64,000 bases of DNA, from positions 806,001 through 870,000 of the forward strand of contig BRXU01000001.1 in assembly GCA_030267565.1 (NCBI GenBank), in the 5' to 3' direction. The DNA comes from Pleodorina starrii. Taxonomy: Eukaryota > Chlorophyta > Chlorophyceae > Chlamydomonadales > Volvocaceae. The number at the start of each line of letters is the position of its first letter. Position 1 is the stretch's first letter. Of this stretch, positions 23,301 to 26,300 are shown one piece after another. Made by a program: the position numbers and the translations under genes. Below the pieces are notes generated by a model, which was given only the letters and a program-made list of their open reading frames with translations, was not told the DNA's origin and made no database searches.

Positions 23301-26300
23301 TTGGGACCCTTCGTACACGCGTAACGCTTGTGTAATTTTACACGCTTTTTTTGCAGCCCAAAAACGTGTAAATTACATATTTTACATGTAATACGTATTA
23401 CATCCGGATTTTCCCCTATTACAGTAAATTCCCAACATTACATACATAAGATACATAGAGCACACAGCTTACCGTATCCCCATCCGCCGCCGTTAGAGCT
23501 CGTACTGTCGTACACCGCGTTGCGGAGAAGAACAACCGGTTTGATTCTTGTACCGGAGGGAACACCTCCGTACGGCGCCATTGCACGCACCTTTAACTCG
23601 TGCGCGTGTATGCATGTGCAGGTGATTGAGGCCTGCCGCGCCATGTTCAAGCACGAGAAGCGTCTGGCCAACTTCTTCATCCGCTCCGCCTTCCATGACT
23701 CCATGGCGGTGGACGTGACGTCCTGCCCTGGACCCAACTGCGGGGGAGCGGACTCGTCCCTGCTCCTCACCATCGAGGAACTCACCAGGCCCGAAAAGTA
23801 AGCAAGCAAGTCTTAGCCCCACGCACCCTGCATGTCATGCGCTGTTGTGTAACGAAAATAGCTAAGAAAGCAGCCGGAGCCTGATCCCAACGCGACACGC
23901 GAGTTCGCGGAATACGCAGAGGCGGTTGATCCGGAAATAAAGAGGGCCGCGTGGAGGCGTAACTGTTCACGCTCAGCCTCGCGGCGCCAACGGACAAGGT
24001 CATCCGCGTCGCGAGCTCGCAGACATTGTCACAGACTGACAGCAAACAGAAAACGACAATTAGAAAGTCGCAAGCCTACCCGCTGAGCCACAGGCGCAAG
24101 CCCGATTGCACAACGGGCAGTCGTACGTTAGACGCCTCAGTCGGCTCGCCGGACGTCACTGTAAGGACAGAACACGTTGAGGCACAACAGCCAAGCAAGC
24201 AGAACAGCAAAGCAACACATACACGAGCCAGAGCCGACAGGAGCAATCAGCAAGGAAAGTCACAGCGTACCGTCCGGAAGAGCGAGCTGAAGGTCGCTCA
24301 GGTCGAGGTTCTCAGACATAGCAGCAGCGGCGGAAGCGAACGAGAAAGGAAACAGAAGAGAGGCCAAGAATGCCGTCTCGATACCAGTTGTTGTGTAACG
24401 AAAATAGCTTAGAAAGTCCACTGCTGTAGTGGCAGTGAAAACCGCCGATTGAGAGATATGATCATCCTTAAGTAACCACGCACGTGTCTCGTGGAGCGTA
24501 TGCAGACCACGCATGTAGTACATCAGTTGTAGAATCTCCGTATAGGAAAGCAGTTGCCAGTCTGACTATGCTTTTTTGATCCATCGCACCCGGCTCCGCG
24601 CTGCAGCACCAGAGATGATTACACATCTCCCTTTATTTGATATTTTTTAACATGAGATAGTATGTGATAAACACATCCCAACTCTGACCAAATACACCTG
24701 TCATATTCGGATCCTGTGCAAACACGTGGAATCCATTGTGATAAATTGCGGTACCACCACCATTGGTATTAAGCCATGGCGATCTGATCCGCTGCACATT
24801 ATATGGCCCCTCCACAACATTATTAATTGTAGGACCACGAATATACACACTCACTGGACGATTACCCGTATAGGTCTTCACCCTATTACCCTGCTCCAGG
24901 AATGTATTCAAATTACCACTACTATAGGTTCCAGTCGGAGTCACCGTAGACCATGGATCTTTCACAATATGTAACATTGCCCCTGCCTGATTGGTCACAC
25001 CTGGCAACGTGGTATCTGTGGTATTCTCACCACCAAAATTATCATACCGAGGACGGAATGTAACCTTATAAGCTGCCAACTTGTATGTATCAAACAAGTT
25101 GGTGAGCTCACCAACATTCGTCATATCATCCAAACGAACACTATAATATCTCCAAAAACCGCCAGTCGTCACTGTATTAGGCGCCCAATTCTGCAACCAC
25201 ATCGTGCGCTGCATCTTCAACATCGGCACACGTGAACGTATCGGTCGGGGCACACGACGAGGCACCATCGTGCGACGACGCTTCGCCACACGCCGACGAC
25301 GCTGCGGATAACGACGTTTAAACACCATAAGTCCATAACCTGCCATATGCTCACATTTTTTTTACAACACACCGACGCAGTATAGCGTCACACAGCACCC
25401 CATCATGGCCAAACAAATGCTCCACTGCATAATTCGATGTAACAATAAACTTCTTGGGCCGTATATGAATGGCCCCACCCTTGGTCTCAGCCAAAAAACT
25501 GTAACGATCCATCCAGATCTTTAACAGATGACCAAGCTCCTTACAATCAAAATCGTCCAGCAACACATTCTCCTCACCCTGATAACCATCCCACCACTTG
25601 TTCTGCATCTTCATATAAGCACCCGGATAATCCACACGAGCCGAACGACTCTTGCCAACACCCGGAGGACCATATATCCACACACCCGTGACATCCTCTG
25701 CATCTGCAGGCTTGCTCATATGATCCTTCGCAATCTCCTTCAACGTCCTCCGCGCTGCAGCACCAGAGATGATTACAAATCTCCCTTTATTTGATATTTT
25801 TTAACATGAGATAGTATGTGATAAAGGTTATACAACCACTTACTATAGGTTATACAACACTAATTATTAATAATTATATAATTAATAATAATTAATTAAT
25901 TAATAACCTAATTAATAATTGTATAATTAATAATAAAAAAATTATTATAACACCACTAAGGTTGTGGTGTTAAGGTAGAAAGAGAAGGAGGAAAGTGAAG
26001 CAATGGCAGCAGATAGGAATATTCCGCCTGCAGCACCAAAGCTGGAATAACGGAAAGCCGCCGAAGGAACGCCATCAGGTAGCACCATCAGGCTGACGAA
26101 CTCGCTGCTCCGTAGCCCAATTCATAGACCGGCCAGTAGTCTGACTACGAAATATGTCAGGGTTCCGTTACAAACGAGTAGTGGTCCTCGGTACGCGATT
26201 TCCGGGTCTCATCGTTCCACGGGAGGCCTGGGCTACATTCGCCCAATGATCCTAATTCCTCACATGATACTCACTGTCGCGAATCAGGCTACGACTAAGC

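What the first reader, a model, noticed from the sequence alone, without database searches (positions are those of the whole stretch)
24594..25825. Endogenous circovirus-like element in a green alga with an intact capsid ORF
Rep helicase and a full 237-residue Arg-rich capsid ORF lie in viral order. Endogenous CRESS sequences are usually Rep-derived; an intact capsid gene in an algal nucleus is unusual and points to a virus infecting this lineage or its symbionts.
Basis: partly seen in the sequence, partly recalled or inferred. Interest (0 to 1): 0.85.

Follow-up and report, generated by a model that had tools for sequence, protein, structure and literature searches.

The report
Circovirus-like virus fossils in green alga
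A green alga's chromosomes carry several insertions of tiny circular DNA viruses, one with an undamaged coat-protein gene of the kind known from animal circoviruses, which points to green algae as hosts of a group of viruses seen so far mainly in environmental sequencing.

Summary

It is not alone. I count six loci in the 136-Mb assembly plus two short pieces, from at least two virus lineages. Three loci carry a different, helicase-less HUH-type Rep with an origin-like hairpin; two of these are tandem arrays closing on 1650- and 1671-bp units. Relatives outside this genome exist: 136 capsid homologues (best 89%), 97 of the 120 listed with a longest contig of 1.5-1.9 kb.

Best reading: repeated accidental capture of rolling-circle products of small circovirus-capsid viruses that infect this algal lineage. 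The window copy should be unable to replicate; whether its capsid is made is unknown. The main value is a host assignment for an uncultured virus group.

The parts
24587..25825 (-). integrated CRESS-virus fragment, about 1.07 turns of a 1154-bp unit
   Evidence: 78-bp direct repeat spaced 1154; GC 0.462 against 0.557 for the window; homology with the C3 copy behind the capsid stop reaches about 24589
24633..25346 (-). capsid ORF, 237 aa, intact
25351..25749 (-). C-terminal helicase half of a Rep, matching residues 131-262 of the 262-aa relative P0133; nuclease half absent
   Evidence: PF00910; 117 of 132 identical to P0133; P0133 has PF02407 and PF00910
24594..24671 (.). terminal direct repeat, copy 1 (capsid tail, stop and the stretch behind it)
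   Evidence: 77 of 78 identical to copy 2
25748..25825 (.). terminal direct repeat, copy 2, joined to the middle of the Rep
   Evidence: place of the join from protein homology
24544..24586 (.). junction filler, also found at C8:194464-194509 (-)
   Evidence: 98% over 24544-24589; 97.4% over 24551-24589
24000..24550 (+). dispersed host repeat that breaks off here; other copies run on with other sequence
   Evidence: continuation printed for 10 other copies
25826..25957 (.). AT-rich stretch between insert and host satellite, origin unknown
   Evidence: no match but itself for query 1-132, in a search that skips simple repeats
25958..26500 (+). start of a host satellite with a period of about 2222 bp, many near-identical copies

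Best explanation
SHOWN: an intact capsid ORF and a helicase-only Rep half inside a unit that repeats its own end; six related loci, two of the others in tandem, most of them broken; relatives on virus-sized contigs elsewhere. INFERRED: during nuclear rolling-circle replication, linear products longer than one unit (or a deletion-bearing circle) were joined into chromosome breaks by end joining, leaving terminal redundancy at three loci and filler at the window's left junction. The missing Rep nuclease half and intergenic region were lost either in a defective circle before integration or by deletion afterwards; both leave the same structure. The window copy should therefore be unable to start replication. 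Its capsid is intact most simply because the insertion is fairly young; use by the host is possible but unsupported. Modules recombine: related capsids occur with a canonical Rep (type A: C1, C2) and with a helicase-less HUH-type Rep (type B: C3:4.59 Mb, C82, C27), whose origin is probably the hairpin just upstream of the Rep start.
Against: No reads: coverage and junction reads are untested. Viral relatives were seen only as proteins; their contigs were not seen, some could themselves be endogenous, and 5 of 5 IMG/VR scans gave no relative. The capsid has no PDB match by sequence up to E 10. Something living with the alga could have been the virus's host. The green-algal poly(A) signal UGUAA follows the capsid stop at 3 of 5 loci, and AATAAA overlaps the stop at the same three, so it does not discriminate. 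The tree is the quick one; the careful search did not finish, and 41 of its 120 inner branches are drawn open.
Confidence: 0.88

Rival explanations
1. Contaminating free virus joined to algal contigs during assembly.
For: The insert has lower GC than the window (0.462 against 0.557), and relatives exist in public data.
Against: Six loci on five contigs, diverged from each other and mostly broken (frameshifted capsid in C82, a stop in one C3 Rep copy, fused and inverted pieces in C2 and C27); a host repeat interrupted with filler.
Confidence: 0.04
2. A domesticated capsid gene kept by the host, for example against related viruses.
For: Two loci keep full-length open capsid frames (window 237 aa; C3:4.59 Mb 259-aa ORF).
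Against: Both look young by their own duplicated parts (1 mismatch in 78 and 1 in 715), so openness needs no selection; no expression data; the capsid sequences at the other loci are frameshifted or partial.
Confidence: 0.08
3. The two types are partners: a helicase-bearing circle and a nuclease-only circle that share capsids and work together.
For: The window (type A) and C3 (type B) elements share 45 of 49 nt from the capsid stop on although their capsids are 57% identical.
Against: P0133, the nearest relative of the window Rep, carries nuclease and helicase in one protein, so type A needs no partner; recombination explains shared modules.
Confidence: 0.08
4. A capsid-bearing transposon family that multiplied inside the genome.
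For: Several copies, with an HUH-type Rep as rolling-circle transposons also have (established knowledge).
Against: Four of the other matches above 200 nt differ from the window element by 10-32% in DNA, with dN/dS 0.08-0.28 in four comparisons; copies group with different relatives from elsewhere; constant ends were not seen in the loci read.
Confidence: 0.02

Closest known systems
Circoviridae (porcine circovirus, BFDV)
   Same: Capsid family PF02443 and predicted fold; Rep helicase similar to solved viral Reps
Sewage-associated circular DNA virus-21 (the only row of the 120 listed named beyond 'hypothetical protein')
   Same: Rep 64% identical to the 76-residue helicase piece of the C2 locus (P0218)
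   Different: Longest contig 2906 nt; five of the six best rows of that search have a longest contig of 1596-1777 nt
Helicase-less HUH Reps of uncultured small DNA viruses (BFVD entries, e.g. Polar freshwater circular DNA virus)
   Same: Fold match of the type-B Rep relative P0123 (best E 1.9e-14, 30% identity, TM 0.57-0.60)
Endogenous CRESS Rep of the green alga Micromonas (Liu et al. 2011, PMC3198968, passages seen)
   Same: CRESS-derived sequence in a chlorophyte genome
   Different: One Rep there; here capsids, tandem units and two Rep types
[quoted passage not shown] abstract and section 7 seen)
   Same: Associated with a green alga, placed nearest Circoviridae by their authors
   Different: Assembled from seaweed samples, not integrated; no sequence comparison made here

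Membership tests
Non-retroviral endogenous viral element | viral sequence contiguous with host DNA on both sides | tested here: met
   in the assembly: host repeat on the left, satellite on the right; read support not testable
Non-retroviral endogenous viral element | decay or rearrangement of copies | tested here: met
   Rep half missing in the window; frameshift, stop, fusion, inversion at other loci
Circovirus-type capsid (PF02443) | family profile over nearly full length, Arg-rich N-terminus | tested here: met
Circovirus-type capsid (PF02443) | fold of circovirus capsids | tested here: met
Circoviridae | Rep and Cap on opposite strands (feature recalled) | tested here: not met
   both on the minus strand
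Circoviridae | origin hairpin with NANTATTAC (feature recalled) | tested here: inconclusive
   motif absent from 5 of 5 element regions, but the type-A intergenic region is missing from the window copy
Circoviridae | Rep with HUH nuclease and helicase | tested here: not met
   window copy has the helicase only; its nearest relative P0133 has both families
Cressdnaviricota (type-A Rep) | helicase homologous to CRESS Reps | tested here: met
HUH endonuclease (type-B Rep) | motif II H-x-H and motif III Y-x-R-Y-x-C-K (motif reading recalled) | tested here: inconclusive
   8 of 12 rows of A2 have PHVH or PHLH, 4 of 12, the C3 copy among them, have PHYQ or PHFQ; YxRYxCKG in 12 of 12; the C82 copy has HYH
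HUH endonuclease (type-B Rep) | HUH nuclease fold | tested here: inconclusive

The most novel reading that the evidence does not exclude
Green algae host a lineage of two-gene DNA viruses of about 1.65 kb that pair a circovirus-type capsid with a helicase-less HUH-type Rep and a non-canonical origin (hairpin with CTWAGGTAGA). These would be complete, self-sufficient genomes, among the smallest of any eukaryotic virus, and they exchange capsids with canonical-Rep relatives in the same host.
Probability: 0.35. Interest if true: 0.82.

Novelty: new variant of a known kind. Interest (0 to 1): 0.7.

Why it matters
Many small CRESS viruses are known only as environmental contigs without hosts. Integrated copies in an algal nucleus name a host lineage and give a culture system in which to look for the virus. 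They extend circovirus-type capsids to a green alga, show related capsids travelling with two different replication modules, and supply circular unit lengths (1650 and 1671 bp) and an origin-like hairpin for the helicase-less type, which makes the question of how small a eukaryotic virus genome can be testable.

Tried and rejected
Rejected: the capsid-family hit at C2:7299422 (E 0.49) as chance. The seven other helicase-family hits were treated as background and not examined one by one: the family rings in 14 of 14 control genomes (6 over the cut-off), although one of the seven (C10, 22.3 bits) is just over the cut-off. UGUAA after the capsid stop as host evidence: 3 of 5 loci, ambiguous because AATAAA overlaps the stop at the same three (PMC1868727, passages). 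The small hairpin near window 24612-24629 as an origin: z -2.5 in copy 1, -0.7 in copy 2, -0.4 at the matching place of C3, not claimed. Equal contig lengths as a sign that HUH-Rep and capsid share contigs: 3 of the 11 Rep contig lengths (all three of the close relatives) equal a capsid contig length, but 34% of lengths between 1600 and 1700 would, so weak; for the first 20 helicase-Rep rows 1 of 20 matched. IMG/VR scans: no relative in 5 of 5. PHROGs: nothing better than E 0.057 for 4 of 4 proteins. Pfam finds no family above its cut-off in 6 of 6 type-B Rep relatives given. A capsid from a circovirus expression construct (a paper on PCV2 Cap in Chlamydomonas was in the listing) is not needed: the window capsid has no PDB sequence match up to E 10. 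18S identification of the alga did not complete, 5 of 5 tries. The careful capsid tree did not finish.

Literature: searches were judged by titles and abstract starts listed (all listed except, 15 of 21, and, 15 of 65); none describes a circovirus-type capsid in a green algal genome. Only open-licence PMC papers are held. PMC10120064 and PMC10675990 were searched by words only: no CRESS or circovirus term in either.

Full report

THE REP IS HALF A GENE AND THE INSERT REPEATS ITS OWN END. Aligned to intact viral Reps, the window frame begins to match at residue 131 of the 262-residue protein P0133 (117 of 132 identical), at the edge of a 78-bp direct repeat. P0133 carries both the nuclease (PF02407) and the helicase (PF00910) family, so the window lacks the nuclease half. 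The repeat (24594-24671 and 25748-25825, one mismatch, spacing 1154) holds the capsid tail and the stretch behind its stop. The insert is thus about 1.07 turns of a 1154-bp unit. A deletion-bearing circle that integrated with overlap, and a longer insert that later lost its intergenic region and the nuclease half, leave the same structure; I cannot tell them apart.

JUNCTIONS. The left host flank belongs to a dispersed repeat (42 matches in the genome, counting itself and the filler match). I compared 10 of the 11 other copies fetched; the eleventh does not reach this point. All ten come within 12 nt of it and run on with other sequence, while the window copy breaks off at about 24544-24550. 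About 43 nt of filler follow, which occur also on contig C8 (98% over 24544-24589; 97.4% over 24551-24589), then viral sequence from about 24587. On the right a 132-bp AT-rich stretch without other matches leads into a satellite of about 2.2 kb period. Such filler is typical of end joining (established knowledge).

HOST. psaF, nuclear in green algae and plastid-borne in red algae (recalled), lies on contig C51 in three matched stretches broken by introns. A 56-residue exon piece is identical at 53 positions to the best PDB chains, which I recall to be from Chlamydomonas. The species was not identified; the 18S search did not complete.

IT IS ONE OF SIX LOCI. Searches with the insert, the capsid family, the HUH Rep and a relative of the canonical Rep plus direct reading give: C1 (window); C82:42-45 kb; C2:5.044 Mb; C3:1.737 Mb; C3:4.592 Mb; C27:0.685 Mb; and short pieces on C19 (20 residues, 90%) and C17 (36 nt, 94%). 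The C3:4.592-Mb element is a tandem: 715 bp repeated at 1671-bp spacing with one mismatch; the second Rep copy has a stop. It has an open 259-aa capsid frame and an open 230-aa Rep frame and abuts a retrotransposon-type reverse transcriptase frame (RVT_1 and RNase H families). The C82 element repeats 938 bp at 1650-bp spacing with 23 mismatches, lies between satellite sequence, and its capsid is frameshifted. The C2 and C27 loci are rearranged: C2 fuses a capsid piece in frame to a helicase piece, and C27 holds a C3-like capsid tail (95% over 59 residues) next to C82-like DNA (87-88% over 785 nt) in the other direction. Recombination or co-capture is therefore likely.

RELATIVES ELSEWHERE. The capsid has 136 homologues at E up to 0.001 among 372 candidates. 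The best, P0001, is 89% identical over 83% of the query; for 97 of the 120 listed, the longest contig is 1500-1900 nt. The type-B Rep has 11 among 296, three of them 60-62% identical with longest contigs of 1635-1674 nt. The helicase piece has 167 among 172. I saw these only as proteins, and IMG/VR gave none in 5 of 5 scans. In a quick tree of 123 capsids the window pairs with P0001 (support 85), the C82 capsid joins them (99), and the C3 capsid lies elsewhere; well-supported branches require at least two changes of the endogenous label. Between window and the C3:1.737-Mb fragment 15 synonymous and 5 non-synonymous changes were counted (dN/dS 0.08; against the C82 capsid 0.12 and 0.25 for its two parts; against the C2 helicase 0.28). 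Divergence thus arose mostly under selection on the protein, as expected if different viruses were captured at different times.

HOW IT WORKS. Most likely the viruses replicate by rolling circle in the algal nucleus, and over-length linear products are occasionally caught in chromosome breaks. The window copy has no Rep nuclease half and no recognised origin and should be unable to replicate. Its capsid frame is open probably because the insertion is young; expression is untested. Shown: anatomy, homology, multiplicity, host flanks in the assembly. Inferred: rolling-circle origin of the redundancy, infection of the alga itself, passive fate.

NOVELTY. Endogenous CRESS elements are well known. 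Liu et al. 2011 list one Rep in Micromonas and, as I read the totals row, 3 capsids against 302 Reps (passages); van der Loos et al. 2023 report CRESS viruses from Ulva samples (abstract and section 7). Nine of the ten library searches were on this question; no listed title or abstract start describes a circovirus-type capsid in a green algal genome, in a library limited to open-licence papers. I file this as a new variant of a known kind.

Noticed in passing
L033 (G000:C2:8784000-8793900) 1868-2650 (-); also C2:8793390, C16:853075, C16:857254: Another CRESS Rep-like frame (PF02407 near its cut-off; PDB match 6h8o_A, faba bean necrotic yellows virus Rep nuclease, E 8.4e-7) in two pairs of repeats with 4.2- and 7.1-kb spacing.
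   Followed up: partly
window 25958 to about 35400: Satellite-like repeat with a period of about 2222 bp, five copies in a row here and near-identical copies on many contigs.
   Followed up: no
window 53874-62052: Ten long TACA/ACAT tetranucleotide arrays, 99-100% matching, up to 555 bp, at fairly regular spacing.
   Followed up: no
window 41461-42361: A 900-bp AT-rich dinucleotide-type array; GC 0.288 for 41001-42000.
   Followed up: no
window 24587-24635 and L029:4123-4171: The 49 nt from the capsid stop on are identical at 45 places between the window and C3 elements although their capsids are only 57% identical: a recombination point or a conserved signal.
   Followed up: partly
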